From Lichenifustis flavocetrariae (lineage in GTDB: Bacteria > Pseudomonadota > Alphaproteobacteria > Rhizobiales > Beijerinckiaceae): a stretch of DNA of 64,000 nucleotides. Each line of letters opens with the position of its first letter. Positions within the stretch are counted from its first letter, which is position 1. The notes beneath the pieces are model-generated. The model searched no databases. It was not told the origin of the DNA and saw only the letters and a list, made by a program, of their open reading frames with translations. Location of the stretch: NCBI RefSeq assembly GCF_026130545.1, contig NZ_JAMOIM010000005.1:62001-126000 (forward strand), read 5' to 3'. Positions 18,813 through 27,398 of this stretch are shown in pieces. The translations under genes were made by a program, and so were the position numbers.

Positions 18813-19057
18813 TCTTGGCGGCTTACTTTCGTCGAGAAACCGACCGTCAGCCACAAGACCTTGGCAGCGAGCCGGGCTCTTAAAGCCGTACGATCCTCTG
18901 CCCAAATGACCGCATCCTGGCGACCCACTATTCTTAGATGACGAGAGAAAGTGGAAACCGCTCCCGATTTCTTAGACTGGCTATTTCTCCCCCACGCTTC
19001 CTCGCCTTAGATGAAGGGCCGCGTCAGTATCGCGCGGCGCGAAGGAAGCGACGATCG

Positions 19058-19903
19058 ATGGCCGTTTTTCTGTGCACCGCATGCGGCACGTCTTTTCCTG
19101 AAGCGCCAGTACAGCCGGAGCGATGCCCGATCTGCGAGGACGAGCGCCAGTATGTGCCGGCAGCGGGCCAGGGCTGGACCACCCACCCAGCCTTGGAAGC
19201 TGACCACCGCAATGCGTGGCGCCTTCACGAACCCGGTCTCATGAGCGTGCAGACCGTTCCGACCTTTGCAATCGGCCAGCGTGCCTTCCTGCTGCGCACC
19301 CCGAGCGGCAACATCCTATGGGACTGCATCTCTCTCCTCGATCCGGCCACCGAGGAACTTGTCAGGGGGCTTGGCGGCCTCGCCGCCATCGCAATATCCC
19401 ACCCGCATTATTACACGACGGCGATGGATTGGGCCGCCACCTTCGATGCGTCACTGCACCTCCATGCCGCCGACCGCGCCTGGGTTGTTCGGCCCGACCC
19501 AAGGATCCGGTTCTGGTCGGGCGAGACGCTCGACCTTCTTCCCGGCGTCACGCTGATCCGCGCCGGTGGACATTTCGCCGGCGGCACCGCGTTGCATTGG
19601 GCCGACACGGCGGATGGTGCGGGCACATTGCTCCCCGGCGACATCGTGCAGGTTGCACCTGGCGGCCGGCGAGTCTCCTTCATGCGGAGCTACCCGAACA
19701 TGCTGCCCCTGCCGGCCACGGAGGTCCGGAGGATCGCCGCGCTGCTGGCACCCTGGCGCTACGCACGTATCTATGGCGTCTTTGCAGGTCTCGACGTGGT
19801 CCACGACGGACCCGCGATCGTCGCCCGATCGGCTGCGCGCTACGCGGAGATCCTGGAACATGGGTTGGATGCGGAAGCTGGTAGAGGTCTCGCACAGACC
19901 TAG
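19058..19903 (+). CDS. MBL-fold hydrolase-like protein with N-terminal CxxC pairs
   Basis: A 281-residue protein. The N-terminus has two cysteine pairs (C6/C9 in CTAC and C23/C26 in CPIC), suggesting a small zinc ribbon. The rest reads like the metallo-beta-lactamase fold: AIAISHPHYYT where HxHxDH is expected, then HLHAADRAWV, GGHFAGGTALHWA and LLPGDIVQV. The D and last H of HxHxDH are replaced by Y and T, so a normal dinuclear zinc site is doubtful. The start at 19058 follows GAAGGAAG; an in-frame start at 18938 adds 40 unlikely residues. It is separated by 245 bases from the operon before it and convergent with the next gene, six bases away. The function is unknown. Confidence 0.82.
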   Translation: MAVFLCTACGTSFPEAPVQPERCPICEDERQYVPAAGQGWTTHPALEADHRNAWRLHEPGLMSVQTVPTFAIGQRAFLLRTPSGNILWDCISLLDPATEELVRGLGGLAAIAISHPHYYTTAMDWAATFDASLHLHAADRAWVVRPDPRIRFWSGETLDLLPGVTLIRAGGHFAGGTALHWADTADGAGTLLPGDIVQVAPGGRRVSFMRSYPNMLPLPATEVRRIAALLAPWRYARIYGVFAGLDVVHDGPAIVARSAARYAEILEHGLDAEAGRGLAQT

Positions 19904-19909
19904 GTGTGT

Positions 19910-20683
19910 CTAACGCGCCGTGAGCCATCCCAAGAGATTGCGCCAGAGGGTCGCGTAGCCCGGCCAATCCACGAAGGTCTGTGGCAGCCAGTGCGGACCG
20001 ATGTCGGACGTCCAGACCGCCGTACGGCCTTGCCCGAAGGTTCCGGTGACGAGAAGCGGATGGCCGCCCTGGTCCTCCGGTAGCGTCGCAAGCACGTCGA
20101 CACCGGTGCCTGTCTTCAGCACGACCTCATTGGCCCCCAGCAGCACCGGCCAGTCTGTGCCGAGGCCCTGGAGCACGGGATGGTCGGCCGGGCCGACCAC
20201 TTTGGCTTTGAAGCCCTCGGGAATTTCCAGGCGATCGTCATAGGGCAGACAGGTCACCGGCAACGCCTCCTCGACGGCCGTGCGGCTCCAGCGAGCCTTC
20301 CCGTCAATGCCCTGAAAGGAAAAATAGCCACCGATCATGGCGAGGCCACCGCCCTGAGCGGTCCAGTCGCGCAGGAGCTTCAGGCGATTCGGATAGGTCT
20401 TGCCATGCAACCAGACATCCGGGTGCAGCAGGATCGAGTTGGCGCCGATGTCCGAGAGCAGGATGGCATCATAGGCCTTGAGGCCTTCGAGCGTGCTCGG
20501 CACGCCATTCACGGCCTCGTGCGCGGGCATGTAGGTGAGTTCGAAGGGGCTGTCCTTAAGGGCCGCGACGAGCGGTTCGGCGCCCAGGTGAAAAGTCACG
20601 CTGCCGAACTGGTCGAAGCCCTTGTAATGGGTCGCCGAACTCACCCAGCTTTCGCCGACCAGCAAGACTTTCTTCTTGTCCAT
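19910..20683 (-). CDS. Glutamine-amidotransferase-like protein (STM3548/COG5426 type)
   Basis: A 257-residue protein of the class-I glutamine amidotransferase/ThuA-like superfamily. Recognisable parts are KVLLVGESWVSSATHYKG at the N-terminus, YDAILLSDIGANSILLHP, GGGLAMIGGYFSFQG, and TFGQGRTAVWTSDIGPHW. No cysteine stands where a glutaminase nucleophile would be expected, so it may bind a sugar or act by another chemistry. The ATG at 20683 gives the family N-terminus; a longer frame from 20821 adds 46 residues of low complexity. It is the last gene of the sugar operon and follows BtpA by 37 bases. ThuA-like proteins often accompany sugar catabolism; the specific role is unknown. Confidence 0.8.
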   Translation of the reverse strand: MDKKKVLLVGESWVSSATHYKGFDQFGSVTFHLGAEPLVAALKDSPFELTYMPAHEAVNGVPSTLEGLKAYDAILLSDIGANSILLHPDVWLHGKTYPNRLKLLRDWTAQGGGLAMIGGYFSFQGIDGKARWSRTAVEEALPVTCLPYDDRLEIPEGFKAKVVGPADHPVLQGLGTDWPVLLGANEVVLKTGTGVDVLATLPEDQGGHPLLVTGTFGQGRTAVWTSDIGPHWLPQTFVDWPGYATLWRNLLGWLTAR

Positions 20684-20720
20684 CACACCTGTCCTTGAAG
20701 GTTCGGTTGCCCACGCATCA

Positions 20721-21560
20721 TCACCGTCCGGCGGCTGCCGCAAAGGCGCGCACGCGGGCGGGATCGGCCGGGTTCCACCAGACGCCGCCGTGCTTGAGCG
20801 ACGAGGCAACGATGACGCCATCGACGATGTCCAGGATGGCGGCGACGTTGTCGGCCGTCACCCCGCTCCCGACGAGCGTCGGCAGATGCGATGCCTGCTT
20901 GATCTGTCGGATGTAGCCGAGATCGGCCGCGTGGCCGGTCCGCTGTCCCGTGGCGATGATGGCGTCGGCGTCGAAGAACACGAGGTCGCGCACCAGTTCC
21001 TCGACCGCCCGGTCGCCCGTGATCGCATGCGCGCCATGTTTCACGTGAGCATCGGCAAAAATGCGGATTCCCTTGGCGCGCAGCCGGGCGCGGTAGCGCA
21101 TCGCCTTTGCGGCCTCGCCGTCGAGCAGCCCCTCGTTGGCCACATAGGCGTTCGCCCATTGGTTGACCCGGATGAAACCCGCGCCGCTCGCCGACGCGAT
21201 GGCGAGGGCCGGGATCGGCGCATTGGCCAGAACATTGATGCCGACCGGCTTGCCAAGCGTCAGACGGATGCGATCAGCCGCCACCGCCATATGGGCCGCC
21301 ACTTCGGGGCCGATGTCGTCCGGCTTGCTGAATGGCACGTCGCCATGGTTCTCGACGATGACGCCGTCGCAGCCGTTGTCCAGATAGGCGCGCGCATCGT
21401 CGAGAGCGCGGGTGTAGATGGCATCGACCCCCTCGTCGGCATAGCGCGGCGCGCCCGGGAGCGGCGCCAGATGGATGACGCCGATCAGCGCCTTGGGAGC
21501 GCCGAACAGGGCCATGATCGCATCGCCGGCAATGCCGGACACCGGCTTATCGTCGCTCAT
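20721..21560 (-). CDS. BtpA/SgcQ-family TIM-barrel protein
   Basis: A 279-residue (beta/alpha)8 protein. It has the family signatures ALIGVIHLAPLPGAPRY at the N-terminus, GCDGVIVENHGDVPF, GFIRVNQWANAYVANEG, ADAHVKHGAH and LPTLVGSGVTADNVA, the latter being a phosphate-binding-like loop. BtpA was named for a photosystem I biogenesis role in cyanobacteria, but homologues such as SgcQ lie in sugar operons. Here it overlaps the PfkB kinase gene by ATGA and probably acts on the phosphorylated sugar, perhaps as an aldolase or isomerase; this is inference. Confidence 0.9.
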   Translation of the reverse strand: MSDDKPVSGIAGDAIMALFGAPKALIGVIHLAPLPGAPRYADEGVDAIYTRALDDARAYLDNGCDGVIVENHGDVPFSKPDDIGPEVAAHMAVAADRIRLTLGKPVGINVLANAPIPALAIASASGAGFIRVNQWANAYVANEGLLDGEAAKAMRYRARLRAKGIRIFADAHVKHGAHAITGDRAVEELVRDLVFFDADAIIATGQRTGHAADLGYIRQIKQASHLPTLVGSGVTADNVAAILDIVDGVIVASSLKHGGVWWNPADPARVRAFAAAAGR

Positions 21561-22483
21561 GAGGCCTGCTTTCCAATGGGAGACCGCGCCAGGACCGCGA
21601 GTTCGGCCTCCGTCGGGCAAGACGCGAGAGCGCCCGAGCGGGTAACGGACCGGGATGCTGCCGCAACGGCCTGAGGCAAGGCCTCCGGCAGGTCGAGGCC
21701 TCGCAGCAGGGCCGCGACCAGCACCCCGCAGAAGACATCCCCGGCCCCTGACGTGTCGCACACCTCGACGCACGGGGCCTCAACGGCGATTGCCCCGCCG
21801 GACCACCAAGCCCGCGCACCCTGCCCGCCCAGAGTCACGACCAGATTCCCGACGCGGCGCTTGAGCATCGCTTTCGCTCCGTCCTCGACATCGGTCCGGG
21901 AACTCAGCGTGGCCAACTCGCTACGGTTCAGAACAAGAAGGTCGACGCAGTCCCACCCGATGTCTTCCACGGGAAAAAGCGGACTTGGGTTGAGGACCGT
22001 CATGGCCGAGCGAGCCTTGGCGGCGGCCAGGCAGGCCCGCGTCGTGGCGGCGGTCAGATTGCCTTGCAGAAGCACGATGTCGCCTGCTTGCAGGTGATCG
22101 GCGAACCCGTCCTGCAACGGATCGAAGGCCTGGGCACAGGCGATGGCGCTGACGATGGCGTTTTCACCGTCCTGCTGCACCAGGATCGTCGAACTGTCAG
22201 TGGGAAAAGCCAGGCCCGTGAGCATCGGCATGACGCGCGGATCCCGCGACAACACGATGAGGACCTTTTCGACGTCGTCGACCCCGACGGCCGCATAGAA
22301 AAGGACGTCGGCTCCCGCTCGGGCACTCGCCACAGCTTGGTTGAGGCCCTTGCCGCCCAGCCCCACGCGGCTCTCGAAAGCCACCGACGTCTCGCCGGGC
22401 CGGGGAAAATGCGGCACCACCAGGGTTGTGTCGAAACACAGGTTCCCGACGACGTGGACCCGGGCGGGGCGGTCCAAGCTCAT
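21557..22483 (-). CDS. PfkB-family carbohydrate kinase
   Basis: A 308-residue ribokinase-like sugar kinase. The N-terminal part has RVHVVGNLCFDTT and the glycine pair in VGLGGKGLNQAVASARAG. The C-terminal PfkB motif CDTSGAGDVFCGVLVA contains the catalytic aspartate of GAGD. It overlaps both neighbours by four bases (the phosphotriesterase-family gene upstream and BtpA downstream), so all three are translationally coupled. It probably phosphorylates the product of the hydrolase. The sugar is unknown. Confidence 0.92.
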   Translation of the reverse strand: MSLDRPARVHVVGNLCFDTTLVVPHFPRPGETSVAFESRVGLGGKGLNQAVASARAGADVLFYAAVGVDDVEKVLIVLSRDPRVMPMLTGLAFPTDSSTILVQQDGENAIVSAIACAQAFDPLQDGFADHLQAGDIVLLQGNLTAATTRACLAAAKARSAMTVLNPSPLFPVEDIGWDCVDLLVLNRSELATLSSRTDVEDGAKAMLKRRVGNLVVTLGGQGARAWWSGGAIAVEAPCVEVCDTSGAGDVFCGVLVAALLRGLDLPEALPQAVAAASRSVTRSGALASCPTEAELAVLARSPIGKQAS

Positions 22484-23547
22484 GTCGCGGCCGAGAACAC
22501 CCGGACGGGGTTCTCCTTCATCATGAGATCGATCGCGGCCCGGTCGAGACCGTGCCGTTTCAAGCGGGGCACGAAATGCTTGAGGATGTAGCCATAGCCA
22601 AAGCCACCGTAGCGGGTCAGCATGATCTTCAGGAACACGTCCTGGCTCATCAGCACGCGATGCCCGAAGCCTTTGTCGATCAATCCGCGAATAGCGCGGG
22701 CGTTCTCCTCGTCGGAAGGCGACTGCGCGTTCTGTGCGGCGTAGTAATAATCCATGCCAATCATGTCATATTCCAGGAAGGCGCCGCGTTTCGCGAGCGC
22801 CACCTGATAACCGGCGTCATGCCCACTCGGGTTCATGTGGCACAGCACCGTGTGATTGAGGTCGGCGCCCTCGCATTCGACGATGTCCAACACGTCATGC
22901 GCCAAGCGCTCCCAACCGGGCAGATGGATCGACAAGGGCACGCCGGTGATCCGCGAGGCTCGCGCGGCGGCGCGCAGCGACTTGCGCTCGGCGGTCGTGA
23001 AATCCTTACTGACGCCGACTTCGCCGATGATGCCCGCCATCACGTCGGGTTGCGTCGGCCCTCCGCCGACATCGTTGACGATGAAGGCAGTCGCCTCGTC
23101 GAGATCCATGCGGGTGAACCAGTCCGGATGCGACGCTTCGAGATAGAAGCCCGAGCCCATTACGACATTCAATCGGCTGCGCCGTGCAATGCGTTGCAGG
23201 GCCGCCGGATCACGCCCGATGCCGAGATTGGTCGGGTCGACCACCGTATCGCCGCCCAGTTCGTAATATTTTCCGAGTTCGCCCACAGCGACGTCGACGT
23301 CGAGCAGCAGGCAATTGTCGCGGCTGAGGAAAGGATTCATCCGCAATTCGCCGATGTCTTCCATGCTGACGGGCTTGTCGGACATCGCGAGTTCCGAGGC
23401 CGCGCAGGGGCAGTTCCACAGTTTCGAGGCATCGAGCAGGATATGCTCGTGCATCAGCGTCATCCCCATGCGCTCCACCGGAATCGGCCCATGCACCGTC
23501 ATTACGGTGCCACTCCTCACGCCGACGGGGACCAAGCTGGTGTCCAT
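22480..23547 (-). CDS. Phosphotriesterase-family metal hydrolase (probable sugar lactonase)
   Basis: A 355-residue amidohydrolase-superfamily TIM barrel. The metal-binding HEH is at residues 33-35. A bridging glutamate in IIGEVG replaces the carboxylated lysine of true phosphotriesterases. The later histidines are in SIHLPG and CHMNPSGH and the final aspartate in MSQDVF. The related enzymes with known activity are mostly lactonases. It starts nine bases after the permease gene stop behind GAGGAT. In a sugar operon with a kinase, hydrolysis of a sugar lactone or acyl-sugar is the best guess. A role in organophosphate breakdown is unlikely. Confidence 0.9.
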   Translation of the reverse strand: MDTSLVPVGVRSGTVMTVHGPIPVERMGMTLMHEHILLDASKLWNCPCAASELAMSDKPVSMEDIGELRMNPFLSRDNCLLLDVDVAVGELGKYYELGGDTVVDPTNLGIGRDPAALQRIARRSRLNVVMGSGFYLEASHPDWFTRMDLDEATAFIVNDVGGGPTQPDVMAGIIGEVGVSKDFTTAERKSLRAAARASRITGVPLSIHLPGWERLAHDVLDIVECEGADLNHTVLCHMNPSGHDAGYQVALAKRGAFLEYDMIGMDYYYAAQNAQSPSDEENARAIRGLIDKGFGHRVLMSQDVFLKIMLTRYGGFGYGYILKHFVPRLKRHGLDRAAIDLMMKENPVRVFSAAT

Positions 23548-23556
23548 GTGGAATCC

Positions 23557-24573
23557 TCAGCGCTTGCGGGCGGCGCCGCGGAAGATACGGAAGTTCATCC
23601 AGATCGCCACAAGGATGATGGTGCCGGTGACGATCGGCGTAAGAAACGGCGACAGGTGGGCCAGGATCAAGCCATTGCCGATGACTGCCACCGTCAGCGC
23701 GCCGAGCACGGTGCCGACCATCGTGCCGCGCCCGCCGAACAGGCTCGTGCCACCGAGCACCACGGCCGCGATCACATCGAGCTCGAAGCCTTGGCCGGCG
23801 TTCGACGAGCCGCTGCCGAGCCGTGCCGCGAGCACGACACCCGCCAGGGCCGCCATGGTGCCGGACAGCACGTAGACGAAGAGCGTCACGGCTTTGGTGT
23901 TGACGCCCGCGCGGCGCACCGCTTCGGCATTGGCGCCGATGCCGGTGACATAGCGGCCGAACGGCGTCTGGGTGAAAAGCACGAAGGCGAGAGCCACAAT
24001 GCCGGTTGCGATGATGGCCGGCACGGGCACACCAAGGAACCAGCCGCGCCCGAGTTCCACAAAGGAGAGCGTCGCTGGAATCGGGATGGAATACCCTCCC
24101 GTCGTCAGCAACGCGACGCCACGGATGACGCTTAGGCCCGCCAAGGTGACGATGAAGGCCGGGATGCCCTCATAGGCGACGAAAAAGCCCTGCAGCGCAC
24201 CGATCAGCCCCCCACAGGCAAGCATCAGCAGAACCACCAGAGCCCAGGGAATGCCGGCCTGGATCAGGATCGCACAGAGGGCGCTCACAAGCGCCAAGAT
24301 AGAACCGACCGACAGGTCGATGCCGCCCGTGGTGATCACCAGCGTCATGGCGGCCGCCACCATCAGCAACGGTGACGACTGCCGCAGGATGTTCAGGATG
24401 TTCGGAACGGACAGGAAGTCCTCGGTCGCGACCGAGAACAGCACGACGACGAAAACGAAGAAAACAGCGATCGAGCCGACCCCGCCATTGGCGAAGAAAC
24501 GGTCCTTCAGGCCACGCGGCCGCAGGCGCGTCGCGGGGGTCGGGACGCTCGAGATCTGCGCCGGGGTACTCAT
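23557..24573 (-). CDS. Sugar ABC importer permease (RbsC/FrcC-like)
   Basis: A 338-residue inner-membrane protein of the ribose/fructose/xylose (CUT2) type. Visible signatures are TGGIDLSVGSILAL, FVAYEGIPAFIVTLAGL, GANAEAVRRAGVN and the C-terminal DVIAAVVLGGTSLFGGRG. About eight to ten hydrophobic helices can be counted. The first 35 residues are polar. The start overlaps the ATPase stop by ATGA. A single permease gene implies a homodimer. Confidence 0.94.
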   Translation of the reverse strand: MSTPAQISSVPTPATRLRPRGLKDRFFANGGVGSIAVFFVFVVVLFSVATEDFLSVPNILNILRQSSPLLMVAAAMTLVITTGGIDLSVGSILALVSALCAILIQAGIPWALVVLLMLACGGLIGALQGFFVAYEGIPAFIVTLAGLSVIRGVALLTTGGYSIPIPATLSFVELGRGWFLGVPVPAIIATGIVALAFVLFTQTPFGRYVTGIGANAEAVRRAGVNTKAVTLFVYVLSGTMAALAGVVLAARLGSGSSNAGQGFELDVIAAVVLGGTSLFGGRGTMVGTVLGALTVAVIGNGLILAHLSPFLTPIVTGTIILVAIWMNFRIFRGAARKR

Positions 24574-25367
24574 GAGATCGCCACCCCTTCGGCCTGGGTG
24601 TTACGGGCCGAGCGTGCGCTGAACTTGCGTCCGACGATCAGGTCGACGACCTCCTCGACATTGGTGTCGGCAATCTGGCGCTCGGCAATGGCGCGGCCCT
24701 CATACATCACCTGGATGCGGTCGCAGACCAGGAACAGGTCCTGCAGCCGGTGGGTGATCAGGATGACGCTCACGCCCCGCGCGCTCACGGTACGGATTAG
24801 TTCAAGCACCGCCTCCACCTCGGCGACCGCGAGCGCAGCAGTCGGCTCGTCCATGATCAGGACCTTGGGGTCGAACGAGGCCGCGCGGCCGATCGCGATC
24901 GACTGACGCTGTCCCCCCGACAGGTTTTCGACGTGGACCGTGATGTCCGGCACCGAAATGCCCAGGCGCTGCAGCATCGCGACCGCATCGGCCCGCATCC
25001 GCCGCTTGTCGAGAAACGAGACGCCGAGGATACGCCGGCGCGGCTCGCGGCCAAGGAACAGATTGCCGGCGACATCCACCGTGTCGCAGAGCGACAGGTC
25101 CTGGTAGACCATCTCGACGTGGGCGGCGCGCGCATCGGCCGGGGAGGCGAAGCGGACTTCCCTGCCATCGATCTCGATGGTGCCATCTTCGGGCACCACG
25201 GCACCCGACAGGACCTTGCTGAGCGTCGACTTACCCGCCCCATTGTCCCCGACGAGGCCGAGGACCTCCCCAGGGGCGAGGTCGAGCGCGACATCGTTCA
25301 GCGTCTGGATCGTGCCATAACGCTTGGAGATCCCGCGCATGCGGACCCTGGGTATGGGGGCGGCCAT
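24570..25367 (-). CDS. Sugar ABC importer ATPase, single-domain (FrcA-like)
   Basis: A 265-residue ATPase with one nucleotide-binding domain: Walker A GDNGAGKST, signature NLSGGQRQSIAIG, Walker B VLIMDEPTAAL. Most CUT2 importers (RbsA, XylG) have two fused domains and about 500 residues; this half-length form resembles FrcA and should work as a homodimer. An excellent ACGGAGGTAGC ribosome site precedes the ATG. It lies 24 bases after the binding-protein gene. Confidence 0.94.
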   Translation of the reverse strand: MAAPIPRVRMRGISKRYGTIQTLNDVALDLAPGEVLGLVGDNGAGKSTLSKVLSGAVVPEDGTIEIDGREVRFASPADARAAHVEMVYQDLSLCDTVDVAGNLFLGREPRRRILGVSFLDKRRMRADAVAMLQRLGISVPDITVHVENLSGGQRQSIAIGRAASFDPKVLIMDEPTAALAVAEVEAVLELIRTVSARGVSVILITHRLQDLFLVCDRIQVMYEGRAIAERQIADTNVEEVVDLIVGRKFSARSARNTQAEGVAIS

Positions 25368-25391
25368 GCTACCTCCGTGTTCGGCTTGCTC

Positions 25392-26321
25392 TTACTTGAA
25401 CATGTCCCGGAACTTGTCGACATTGGCCTTGGTGACGATCGTCACCGGCACCTGGATGACAGGCTCGACCTTGCCGCCCTTCTTCAGGCTCTGCAGCGAC
25501 TCGATCGCCACTTTTCCCTCAGTATAGGGGTCCTGCTGCACCACCGCCGTGACCCAGCCCTCGTCAATCCCCTTGATGGCCTGGGCGGTCAAATCCCAGC
25601 CGAACACCTTGACCTTGTCCTTGCGGCCCGCCGTGTCGACGGCCGAGACGGCACCAATCAATTGCGGCTCGCCGGTCGCGTAGATGGCGTTCATGCTCGG
25701 ATTGGCGGTCATCAGGTTCTCGGAGGCCGTGAGCGCCACGTCCTGCACGTTCTGCCCGTCGACCGTATCGGCGAATGTCACGCCGCTGACCGACGCGGTC
25801 TTCTTGAAGCCATCGAGTCGCTGGTTCTGGATGAAGGAGTTGAGTGCGCCGACGATGCCGACCTTGGCCTTGCCGCCCATGTCTTTTTTCACGTAATCGG
25901 CGAAGAAGGTGCCGATATCTTCACCGGCCTTGGTGTTGTCCACCCCGACGAAGGCGACGTTGTCTCCTCCGGGGATCTGCGCGTCGACCGCGATCACCGG
26001 GATGCCAGCCTTTTTGGCATCGACAATGGCAGGCTTGACGCCGTTCACGTCGATCGCGACGAGCACGATGCCATCCACCTTCTGGGTGATGTAGGTCGCG
26101 ACCGCGTCGTTTTGGGCGCTCGGCACATTGTTGGCGTTGAAGATCACGAGCTTGTCGCCGGCCGCATCGGTGGCTTTCTTCGCCCCATCGTTGATCTGGT
26201 TGAAGAACAGGGCCTGCTGATTGATCGTCACCAACGCGTAGGTGGCGGCCTGGGCCGCGGATGCGCCCGAGGCCAAGAGGGCTGAGAGCGCAGCGCCGCG
26301 CAACATCATCGTCCGGTTCAT
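25392..26321 (-). CDS. Sugar ABC importer periplasmic binding protein (RbsB-like)
   Basis: A 309-residue protein with a Sec signal peptide (Arg near the start, then ALSALLASGASAAQA). The mature part is a family-2 sugar-binding (LacI-like) fold: YALVTINQQALFFNQINDGA, VDGIVLVAIDVNG, DAQIPGGDNVAFVGVDN, and an ending typical of CUT2 binding proteins. First gene of the minus-strand sugar operon, preceded by AGAGAGGGA and by a promoter with overlapping palindromes. The ligand is probably a monosaccharide or sugar acid/lactone. Confidence 0.94.
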   Translation of the reverse strand: MNRTMMLRGAALSALLASGASAAQAATYALVTINQQALFFNQINDGAKKATDAAGDKLVIFNANNVPSAQNDAVATYITQKVDGIVLVAIDVNGVKPAIVDAKKAGIPVIAVDAQIPGGDNVAFVGVDNTKAGEDIGTFFADYVKKDMGGKAKVGIVGALNSFIQNQRLDGFKKTASVSGVTFADTVDGQNVQDVALTASENLMTANPSMNAIYATGEPQLIGAVSAVDTAGRKDKVKVFGWDLTAQAIKGIDEGWVTAVVQQDPYTEGKVAIESLQSLKKGGKVEPVIQVPVTIVTKANVDKFRDMFK

Positions 26322-26377
26322 CGCGTGAAATCCCTCTCTACGACGGACCGCATCCCCCCGGAGCTACTCCGTCAGCC

Positions 26378-26406
26378 AACATTCAAGTCTCTTGAAAAAT
26401 TGTCAA
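26378..26406 (-). promoter_or_regulatory. Predicted sigma-70-like promoter of the sugar operon
   Basis: On the minus strand TTGACA (26406-26401) and AATGTT (26383-26378) are separated by 17 bases, about 57 bases before the RbsB-like start. The -35 is perfect and the -10 is weak. Both elements are embedded in the two palindromes described in the next entry. Confidence 0.5.
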
Positions 26407-26415
26407 GAACCTTGA
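26382..26415. promoter_or_regulatory. Two phased palindromes, candidate operators of the XRE-cupin regulator
   Basis: TTCAAG-TCT-CTTGAA at 26382-26396 and TCAAG-AAC-CTTGA at 26403-26415. Their centres are 20 bases apart (about two helical turns), so dimers could bind side by side. They cover the -35 and abut the -10 of the predicted promoter, which suits repression. They lie just downstream of the regulator gene and upstream of the operon it probably controls. Confidence 0.6.
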
Positions 26416-26421
26416 ACCTCA

Positions 26422-27003
26422 TCAGAAGGTTGGAGGTGTGTTCACCCAGAAGATGCTGGCAGGTTCATCCCCTGCGTTCCGGTACGCGTGCGGAAGTTCC
26501 GAAGAGAATACAAAGGAGTCACCCTGATCCAGCCAGAACGTACGGTCGTCCACTATCAGCTCGATGCGACCTCGCAGGACATAGCCCACCTCCTCGCCGG
26601 CATGCTGGATCGGCCCCGCGCTTTCCCCCCCGACCTCGATATGATGGATGTTGCACTGAAGCAGATGCCCGCTCGCATAGGGGATGATGCGCTCAAGACT
26701 GATACCTTCGCCCCGCCGCAGCGGATCGAGTGCGATCAGCGGCCGCGACCCGTGCCGGAAGATGATGCCCTCCTCGCCGTGGCTCTCTTCGAACATCCAA
26801 CCGATATTGATGCCGAGCGCCTGCACCAGGCGATGCAGGGTCGGCAGTGACGGCACGGCCTTTCCGTTCTCGTATTTCGACACGAGACTTTCAGAACAAC
26901 CGGCGGCTTCGGCCAAGGCTTTCAGGGTCAGGCCCCGCGTTTGCCGCGCCAGACGCAGCCGCAAACTCACGCCCGAGAAGGTCGGGGCGTCTTCGATGGA
27001 CAT
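26422..27003 (-). CDS. XRE-cupin transcriptional regulator
   Basis: A 193-residue protein. The N-terminal XRE/HTH_3 domain spans about residues 12-67 (LRLARQTRGLTLKALAEAAG, then SESLVSKYENGKAVPSLPTL). The C-terminal cupin spans about residues 110-190 (HHIEVGGESAG, EEVGYVLRGRIELIVDD, DSFVFSSELPHAYRN). This architecture (SutR/PuuR-like) usually senses a small ligand in the cupin. An in-frame GTG at 27024 is an alternative start; ATG 27003 is preferred on codon grounds, though the ribosome site is weak for both. It is transcribed in the same direction as the sugar operon, with the operator pair between them. Confidence 0.9.
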   Translation of the reverse strand: MSIEDAPTFSGVSLRLRLARQTRGLTLKALAEAAGCSESLVSKYENGKAVPSLPTLHRLVQALGINIGWMFEESHGEEGIIFRHGSRPLIALDPLRRGEGISLERIIPYASGHLLQCNIHHIEVGGESAGPIQHAGEEVGYVLRGRIELIVDDRTFWLDQGDSFVFSSELPHAYRNAGDEPASIFWVNTPPTF

Positions 27004-27398
27004 ATTGATGGATTCACTTCCCACACGGCGATCCGCCGTCCGTCAGCACGGGTTCTAGCGCAACTGGCGGGCAGACCCAACCGGTTCGCAGGATCATAGC
27101 TGTTTCATCGTTTGCCCTGATCAATCTCATTTAGCGGAGTGGGGAGATGTTGCGGAGCCTTCTTCGATCCCCTTCTATTTAACTCGGTGGCGTCGCCCTC
27201 GCTCTTCCCTGCCATTGGCACTCGCCACTTGTGCCCTATACATTTCCACATGCAGTTTGAAGTTCCGATGCGACGGCCAAGATCGGCGTGCTTCGACCCG
27301 AGTATCGGGTCACTCATCTCCTCCGTGCATCGCGCTCTCGACTGCGGTGTCACCCTGATCGCCCGCGCCGAAACCCTCCTGCCGAAAGTCATCTGAGC
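27004..27398. other. Intergenic region between divergent regulator and epimerase
   Basis: About 395 bases with no convincing gene; one short open frame on the plus strand (27139-27396) shows no family features. It must hold the promoters of the XRE-cupin gene and of the epimerase gene. No TTCAAG-type palindrome like that at 26382 was seen here. Confidence 0.5.

What the first reader, a model, noticed from the sequence alone, without database searches (positions are those of the whole stretch)
19910..27003. Uncharacterised sugar or sugar-lactone pathway: importer, PTE-type hydrolase, PfkB kinase, BtpA, amidotransferase-like protein
Eight minus-strand genes are linked by overlaps or very short gaps. 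Seen: CUT2 importer genes, a phosphotriesterase-family enzyme with HEH and a glutamate bridge, a PfkB kinase, a BtpA/SgcQ TIM barrel and an STM3548-type protein. Known: these families occur in sugar operons, and PTE-like enzymes of this type are often lactonases. Inference: import of a sugar lactone or acyl-sugar, hydrolysis, phosphorylation, then cleavage or isomerisation by BtpA, whose enzyme activity is generally not established.
Basis: partly seen in the sequence, partly recalled or inferred. Interest (0 to 1): 0.72.

Follow-up and report, generated by a model that had tools for sequence, protein, structure and literature searches.

The report
Conserved unexplained sugar-conjugate breakdown operon
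A block of eight bacterial genes looks like a complete but still unidentified route for importing and breaking down a modified sugar, probably one carrying a nitrogen-linked group, and it matters because it gives a good handle on two enzyme families whose chemistry is unknown.

Summary
In detail: eight minus-strand genes, 19910-27003, families as named. It is a real operon. Of 80 related loci, chosen by BtpA similarity, 74-80 hold each of the seven other genes, 70 in one order, and 59 add an M20 carbamoylase-family amidase. A paired operator, TCAAGnnnCTTGA, sits before the binding-protein gene (26383-26395 and 26403-26415); at least one copy is in 74 of 75 such gaps.

The lactone reading is weakly supported. 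M20 amidases, TenA-family proteins and the PTER amidase as a relative point rather to a nitrogen-linked, ribose-like substrate. Binding protein and kinase keep part of the ribose pocket but change other contacts throughout, so plain ribose is unlikely.

The clearest general result concerns BtpA. Of 17 BtpA genes in 299 Pseudomonadota genomes, 16 lie within 3 kb of a PfkB or FGGY kinase; the other sits beside a PTS. Its model matches phosphate-binding barrels. BtpA therefore probably acts on the phosphorylated sugar. Substrate and BtpA reaction remain unknown. The Salmonella RikA locus shares three of the families and is also unassigned (PMC13432705). Verdict: real, conserved, uncharacterised; an unusual variant of a known kind.

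The parts
26422..27003 (-). HTH (XRE/PuuR-like) plus cupin regulator, likely the local repressor
   Evidence: Pfam HTH_3/HTH_31 and Cupin_2; homologue in 74 of 80 related loci
26403..26415 (.). operator copy 1, TCAAGnnnCTTGA, overlapping a TTGACA -35-like hexamer
   Evidence: 2 sites in the 64 kb window against 0.06 in shuffles
26383..26395 (.). operator copy 2, 20 bases away, between -35-like and -10-like hexamers (hexamers by inspection)
   Evidence: at least one copy in 74 of 75 regulator-to-binding-protein gaps, two copies in 40
25392..26321 (-). RbsB-like periplasmic binding protein
   Evidence: Peripla_BP_4; closest solved chain 5hsg, E 4.7e-102
24570..25367 (-). half-size ABC ATPase of the importer
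   Evidence: ABC_tran, one stretch; best NCBIfam models AlsA/YtfR/RbsA, matched over one half
23557..24573 (-). RbsC-like permease
   Evidence: BPD_transp_2; ribose permease model best but below its cut-off
22480..23547 (-). PTE-family binuclear metal hydrolase
   Evidence: PF02126; closest chain 3k2g, then 3rhg and 9efa; metal-ligand positions H33, H35, E176, H208, H237, D303 conserved wherever aligned
21557..22483 (-). PfkB-family sugar kinase
   Evidence: PF00294; the position aligned with RbsK E143 is N
20721..21560 (-). BtpA/SgcQ-family phosphate-binding TIM barrel
   Evidence: PF03437 and TIGR00259 above cut-offs; model pLDDT 84, closest folds PRAI, HisF, HisA, TenI, TrpA
19910..20683 (-). 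GATase1_like (STM3548-type) protein, role unknown
   Evidence: PF07090 387.6 bits; closest chains 2gk3 and 3soz

Best explanation
A locally regulated catabolic operon. The binding protein and importer take up a ribose-like sugar that carries a substituent, most likely through an amide or other C-N bond. The PTE-family enzyme hydrolyses that bond (inferred). PfkB phosphorylates the sugar (inferred from family and neighbours). BtpA acts on the phosphorylated sugar, by isomerisation or bond cleavage in the manner of PRAI, HisA or TrpA, to give a pentose phosphate (inferred). Many relatives add an M20 carbamoylase-family amidase, some a TenA protein, for the nitrogenous part; the window operon does not. 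The HTH-cupin protein probably represses the operon at the paired operator. The role of GATase1_like is unknown. Shown here: gene content, conservation, operator, kinase association, fold class. Not shown: substrate, order of steps, any activity.
For: Conserved gene set in 80 loci, 70 with one order of the eight genes, and the same parts rearranged in distant genomes (L132, L122) and on rhizobial plasmids. M20 amidase in 59 of 80. TenA in three plasmid loci and in L122, where it occupies the place of PTE. Kinase within 3 kb of BtpA in 16 of 17, against 25 such kinase matches in the 7.5 Mb own genome. Phosphate-barrel fold. The binding protein keeps positions aligned with RbsB F15, F16, D89, R141, D215, Q235 but has A, A, G where ribose binders have N13, R90, N190, in 76 of 76 (roles recalled). 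E. coli sgcABCEQX, which contains SgcQ, is induced on nitrogen-containing carbon sources (PMC13343008, passages).
Against: No substrate or activity is known for any of the eight proteins. M20 is missing near the window operon and in 21 of 80 loci, only 3 of which end too early to show it; the closest copy elsewhere in the genome is 39% identical. The closest PTE relatives are uncharacterised (3k2g, as far as I know) or, from recall, an esterase on test substrates (Pmi1525). The PTER residues that hold the acidic amine part are not conserved here. E. coli sgc mutants had no growth defect on 190 carbon sources. The 80 loci are close relatives picked by BtpA similarity and are not independent.
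Confidence: 0.4

Rival explanations
1. Sugar lactone pathway: PTE opens an imported aldonolactone, PfkB phosphorylates the acid, BtpA processes it.
For: A phospho-furanose lactonase model is among the three weak NCBIfam matches of the PTE (78.6 bits, cut-off 630); many PTE-like enzymes are lactonases (search listing).
Against: Beyond the eight genes and M20 no gene recurs in more than 10 of the loci (those rarer genes were not identified), so no aldonate-processing partner recurs. Among the 60 of 128 chains listed, PTER-related 9efa ranks third, above the PHP and lactonase-type chains.
Confidence: 0.15
2. Catabolism of a nucleoside-like N-ribosyl compound: 5-phosphorylation by PfkB, then BtpA releases or rearranges the phosphoribosyl amine, while PTE, M20 and TenA dismantle the base.
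For: PRAI and HisA, among the closest folds, act on phosphoribosyl amines (recalled); another BtpA gene of the same genome sits in a block with a Bmp/PnrA-type importer, SIS protein and PfkB; the sgc paper places nucleosides in its groups C/D and discusses inosine with group D, where sgc is induced.
Against: Fold similarity cannot fix the reaction; equivalence of PRAI/HisA catalytic residues was not tested; 8 of the 17 BtpA places have FGGY kinases, which usually take open-chain sugars (recalled).
Confidence: 0.15
3. N-acylated amino sugar: PTE or M20 deacylates, PfkB phosphorylates, BtpA deaminates or epimerises as SIS-type or NanE-like enzymes do.
For: NanE is among the fold matches (rank 28); SIS domain beside BtpA in L019; M20 deacylases recur with GATase1_like.
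Against: No NagA- or NagB-type gene in the operon; kinase and binding protein are ribose-like, not hexosamine-like.
Confidence: 0.15
4. Accessory ribose use, as with RikA: the kinase makes ribose 5-phosphate and the rest is incidental.
For: RikA (STM3547), from a locus with GATase1_like and PTE, is a ribose kinase (PMC13432705, abstract and passages).
Against: The position aligned with RbsK E143 is E in the RikA-like E. albertii protein but N in 79 of 80 operon kinases; ribose contacts of the binding protein are changed in 76 of 76; the authors themselves suspect an unknown substrate.
Confidence: 0.05
5. Salvage of a thiamine- or pyrimidine-derived compound, given TenA and an M20 enzyme as in base-degraded thiamine salvage (recalled).
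For: TenA in L006-L008 and L122; both TenA and M20 in L007.
Against: No TenA match passed the filter in the 80 loci or near the window operon; the three aligned TenA proteins contain no cysteine, whereas classical TenA uses one (recalled); best thiaminase model 50.3 bits against a cut-off of 130.
Confidence: 0.05

Closest known systems
Salmonella STM3547-3550 (RikA locus)
   Same: PfkB kinase, GATase1_like (STM3548) and PTE together; substrate also unassigned (PMC13432705, abstract and passages)
   Different: DMT-family transporter instead of an ABC importer, no BtpA in the described set; the E. albertii relative of the kinase keeps the RbsK glutamate
E. coli sgcABCEQX
   Same: BtpA/SgcQ protein with a sugar-phosphorylating system and a zinc hydrolase (M42 in the like locus L121)
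   Different: PTS importer and pentulose-phosphate epimerase; no PTE, PfkB or GATase1_like found in L121
rbs ribose operon
   Same: RbsB- and RbsC-like importer parts and a ribokinase-type PfkB
   Different: half-size ATPase, altered ribose contacts, extra hydrolase, BtpA and GATase1_like, HTH-cupin regulator
PTER, N-acetyltaurine hydrolase
   Same: PTE family, same metal-site pattern with glutamate, third best solved sequence
   Different: R204, R233 and H300 of mouse PTER correspond to W212, P240, F305 here (my mapping through 9efa)

Membership tests
CUT2 (RbsABC-type) sugar importer | Peripla_BP_4 binding protein and BPD_transp_2 permease | tested here: met
CUT2 (RbsABC-type) sugar importer | double-domain ATPase of about 500 aa | tested here: not met
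   265 aa, one ABC_tran stretch; matches one half of the RbsA/AlsA models
Ribose-specific RbsB | ribose contacts incl. N13, R90, N190 (residue roles recalled) | tested here: not met
   A, A, G at these positions in the window and 76 of 76 loci
Ribokinase (RbsK) | TIGR02152 or PRK11142 above cut-off | tested here: not met
   181.1 against 299.65 and 154.9 against 341
PfkB kinase | PF00294 and catalytic aspartate in DTSGAGD | tested here: met
PTE family | PF02126 with HxH, bridging E, H, H, D metal ligands (roles recalled) | tested here: met
PTER-type N-acyl amine hydrolase | R204, R233, H300 substrate contacts | tested here: not met
   W212, P240, F305; residue list from PMC11374699 section 6
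Phospho-furanose lactonase | NF045706 above cut-off | tested here: not met
   78.6 against 630 bits
BtpA/SgcQ family | PF03437 and TIGR00259 above cut-off | tested here: met
   247.7 against 30 and 228.1 against 153.4 bits
Photosystem I biogenesis BtpA | NF045918 above cut-off | tested here: not met
   200.7 against 400 bits
Glutamine amidotransferase | GxCxG nucleophile elbow with catalytic cysteine (recalled) | tested here: inconclusive
   the stretch that I take for the elbow reads GGY without cysteine in 12 aligned sequences (by inspection); the PF07090 name does not imply activity
BtpA as phosphosugar enzyme | activity on a phosphorylated sugar | not testable with these tools
   supported only by fold and neighbourhood

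The most novel reading that the evidence does not exclude
BtpA/SgcQ is a widespread, unrecognised enzyme of phosphorylated N-glycosides, and this operon degrades an N-ribosyl cyclic ureide, such as a modified or damaged nucleoside: PTE acts as the ring-opening amidase, the M20 enzyme as the carbamoylase, PfkB as the 5-kinase, and BtpA frees or rearranges the phosphoribosyl part in a PRAI-like reaction.
Probability: 0.12. Interest if true: 0.78.

Novelty: new variant of a known kind. Interest (0 to 1): 0.55.

Why it matters
BtpA/SgcQ and GATase1_like are conserved families with, as far as I know, no established reaction. A compact operon with a dedicated binding protein, hydrolase, kinase and operator gives a direct way to find their substrate. 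The near-constant pairing of BtpA with sugar kinases turns an annotation that still recalls photosystem I into a testable claim about phosphosugar chemistry. The operon is common in the rhizobial records fetched, several of them plasmids, so its nutrient may matter in soil or on plants.

Tried and rejected
Plain ribose use: thought unlikely because of the changed contacts in binding protein and kinase. PTER-like N-acetyltaurine or N-acetyl-beta-alanine hydrolysis: thought unlikely because three substrate contacts differ. Photosystem BtpA: below the model cut-off. Glutamine amidotransferase: no cysteine at the elbow as I read the alignment. A structured RNA at Rfam gathering scores or a tRNA in the window: none found. 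Profile comparison of BtpA with GATase1_like gave nothing. The promoter scan found no sigma-70 match at its thresholds in 19800-27200, so the -35/-10 assignment rests on inspection and on likeness across loci. A first guess at the operator, CTTGAn6TCAAG, was absent in all 75 regions.

Papers: BtpA + phosphotriesterase + PfkB, 0 papers; SgcQ or BtpA, 218 papers of which 40 were listed, mostly other meanings of BtpA; PTE + ribokinase + TenA + binding protein + operon, 1 unrelated; the sgc genes, 4; BtpA family + ribokinase + ABC transporter + Rhizobium + PTE, 6, none about this operon by title and abstract start. Searches (20 of 72 listed; 8) were about PTE lactonases and ThuA-like proteins.

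Dropped rows: three BtpA matches below the Pfam cut-off. In one search, 25 of 36 rows were partial matches inside frames of about 675-760 aa; the other 11 rows are the 10 genomes counted, one gene being in two pieces. In layouts, tblastn pieces covering less than 40-45% of the query were dropped. The ORF caller missed several genes, so counts come from tblastn. In two of the 80 loci (L060, L062) GATase1_like lies outside the operon, on the other strand. In one search the SIS query carried an internal stop from a guessed end; the SIS statement rests on Pfam.
Full report
What is there. The window holds eight minus-strand genes at 19910-27003. Pfam and NCBIfam confirm the families: HTH-cupin regulator, RbsB-like binding protein, ABC ATPase, RbsC-like permease, PTE-family hydrolase, PfkB kinase, BtpA and GATase1_like. 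Three junctions overlap by 4 bases and three have gaps of 9, 24 and 37 bases. The 100-base gap after the regulator carries the control region. The ATPase is half the length of the RbsA-type models.

Conservation. These are close relatives (BtpA 71-83% identical), nearly all Hyphomicrobiales by their titles, so they are not independent. By tblastn, of 80: BtpA 80, GATase1_like 80, PTE 79, PfkB 79, permease 78, ATPase 77, binding protein 76, regulator 74, M20 carbamoylase-family amidase 59. In 70 of 80 the eight genes stand in the order regulator, binding protein, ATPase, permease, PTE, GATase1_like, PfkB, BtpA, with M20 after BtpA where present. Of the 21 without M20, three end within 1.3 kb of BtpA. 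The window has GATase1_like last and no M20 nearby; among the loci with both intergenic and gene data only L039 (Lichenibacterium ramalinae) shares that order. The best M20 homologue elsewhere in the genome is 39% identical.

Less biased test. In an even sample of 299 Pseudomonadota genomes, 14 had BtpA over the Pfam cut-off, at 17 places. In the same sample 10 genomes had a GATase1_like gene over its full length, one of them in two frames. In 5 of these 10 it lies within 8 kb of BtpA. Distant versions keep the parts in other arrangements: L132 has the other seven functions with a LacI-type regulator in place of the HTH-cupin protein; L122 has LacI-type regulator, importer, TenA, BtpA and PfkB, and the same genome has importer, PTE and GATase1_like on another contig, L147. 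All 10 GATase1_like genes lie beside matches to RbsABC-type importer genes, and in three of the five without BtpA nearby an M20 protein follows (L148-L150).

BtpA and kinases. At 16 of the 17 BtpA places a PfkB or FGGY kinase starts within 3 kb; the 17th, L121, looks like the sgc operon, with a PTS permease (EIIC-GAT), an M42 hydrolase and a ribulose-phosphate epimerase. Kinase calls rest on Pfam for most and on tblastn for the rest; eight are FGGY. The own genome has 16 PfkB and 9 FGGY matches in 7.5 Mb, so by my arithmetic about 2-3% of positions would have one that near. All three BtpA genes of the genome do. M42 hydrolases stand beside BtpA in L121, L123 and L125.

BtpA structure. An AlphaFold2 model from 24 sequences has mean pLDDT 84.1 and pTM 0.86; residues 136-138 and the N-terminus are below 50. 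Its best PDB matches are PRAI (4aaj, E 2.8e-9), HisF, HisA/PriA, TenI, TrpA, ribulose-phosphate epimerase and ThiE, with NanE further down, the phosphate-binding TIM barrels. TM-scores on the query are about 0.5-0.6, so this gives the class, not the reaction. No solved chain is a sequence relative at better than E 0.05.

Substrate clues. The closest solved binding protein is 5hsg; I did not look up its ligand. Against ribose binders, positions aligned with RbsB N13, R90 and N190 are A, A and G, and F214 is W, in 76 of 76 loci, while F15, F16, D89, R141, D215 and Q235 are kept (residue roles recalled, mapping mine). The kinase keeps the ribokinase positions D16, K43, N46 and the catalytic D, but RbsK E143 is N in 79 of 80 and T in one; the RikA-like protein of E. 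albertii has E. Both proteins therefore look ribose-like but altered. The PTE enzyme is nearest 3k2g, then Pmi1525 (3rhg), then PTER-related 9efa. PTER hydrolyses N-acetyltaurine (PMC11374699: passages and section 6 read) and N-acetyl-beta-alanine (PMC13311154: abstract read). Its R204, R233 and H300 are W, P and F here, so an amidase is possible but hardly on that substrate. The M20 enzyme belongs with carbamoylases. TenA proteins occur in L006-L008 and L122.

Control. TCAAGnnnCTTGA occurs twice in the window, both in the regulator-to-binding-protein gap. It is present in 74 of 75 such gaps (74 loci plus the window; L020 lacks it), twice in 40; base shuffles give 0.01 of 75. Of 127 sites in 1.40 Mb of loci, 112 lie in this gap. 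The LacI-regulated L006, L007 and L132 lack it; L008 and L122 have one site each, away from the promoter by position. The own genome has 11 sites against 6 for the reversed control, and only the operon has a pair, so it looks like a local switch. That the HTH-cupin protein binds it is inferred.

Literature. RikA (STM3547) is a ribose kinase; its locus holds STM3548 (GATase1_like), a DMT transporter and STM3550 (PTE), and the authors leave the substrate open (PMC13432705: abstract and passages). E. coli sgcABCEQX is induced on nitrogen-containing, slow-growth carbon sources, and sgc mutants had no growth defect on 190 carbon sources (PMC13343008: passages). The searches, and the 40 of 218 papers listed, showed no paper on the PTE-PfkB-BtpA operon; subscription journals are mostly not held.

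Judgement. The lactone idea is possible but has little support from the neighbours. The best reading is catabolism of a ribose-like sugar with a nitrogen-linked substituent, with BtpA acting after phosphorylation. Every enzymatic step is inferred.

Noticed in passing
G000:C92:593105-593863 and C74:144780-145535 (L018, L019): Two further BtpA genes in the same genome: one beside an FGGY kinase with an M20 protein 4 kb off, one in a block with SIS, PfkB and a Bmp/PnrA-type importer.
   Followed up: partly
L005:7774-8952 and L012:7749-8963: PfkB kinases fused to a LacI-type or DeoR-type DNA-binding domain beside GATase1_like, suggesting kinase-based sensing.
   Followed up: no
L132 (G178:C11:346604-347339): GATase1_like is split over two frames in this genome, a likely frameshift.
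   Followed up: no
L013 (Agrobacterium fabrum pTi): GATase1_like lies directly after the trb conjugation genes and near a hydantoinase/oxoprolinase pair, SIS and fructoselysine-kinase-like genes (annotation).
   Followed up: no
L122 and L147 (same genome G249): The operon appears split in two importer loci, one with TenA, BtpA and PfkB, the other with PTE and GATase1_like.
   Followed up: partly
18938-19903: Plus-strand ORF convergent with the operon, without a Pfam match at E 1e-6.
   Followed up: no
L148, L149, L150: GATase1_like with RbsABC-type importer genes and an M20 protein, without PTE or BtpA matches in the fetched stretch.
   Followed up: partly
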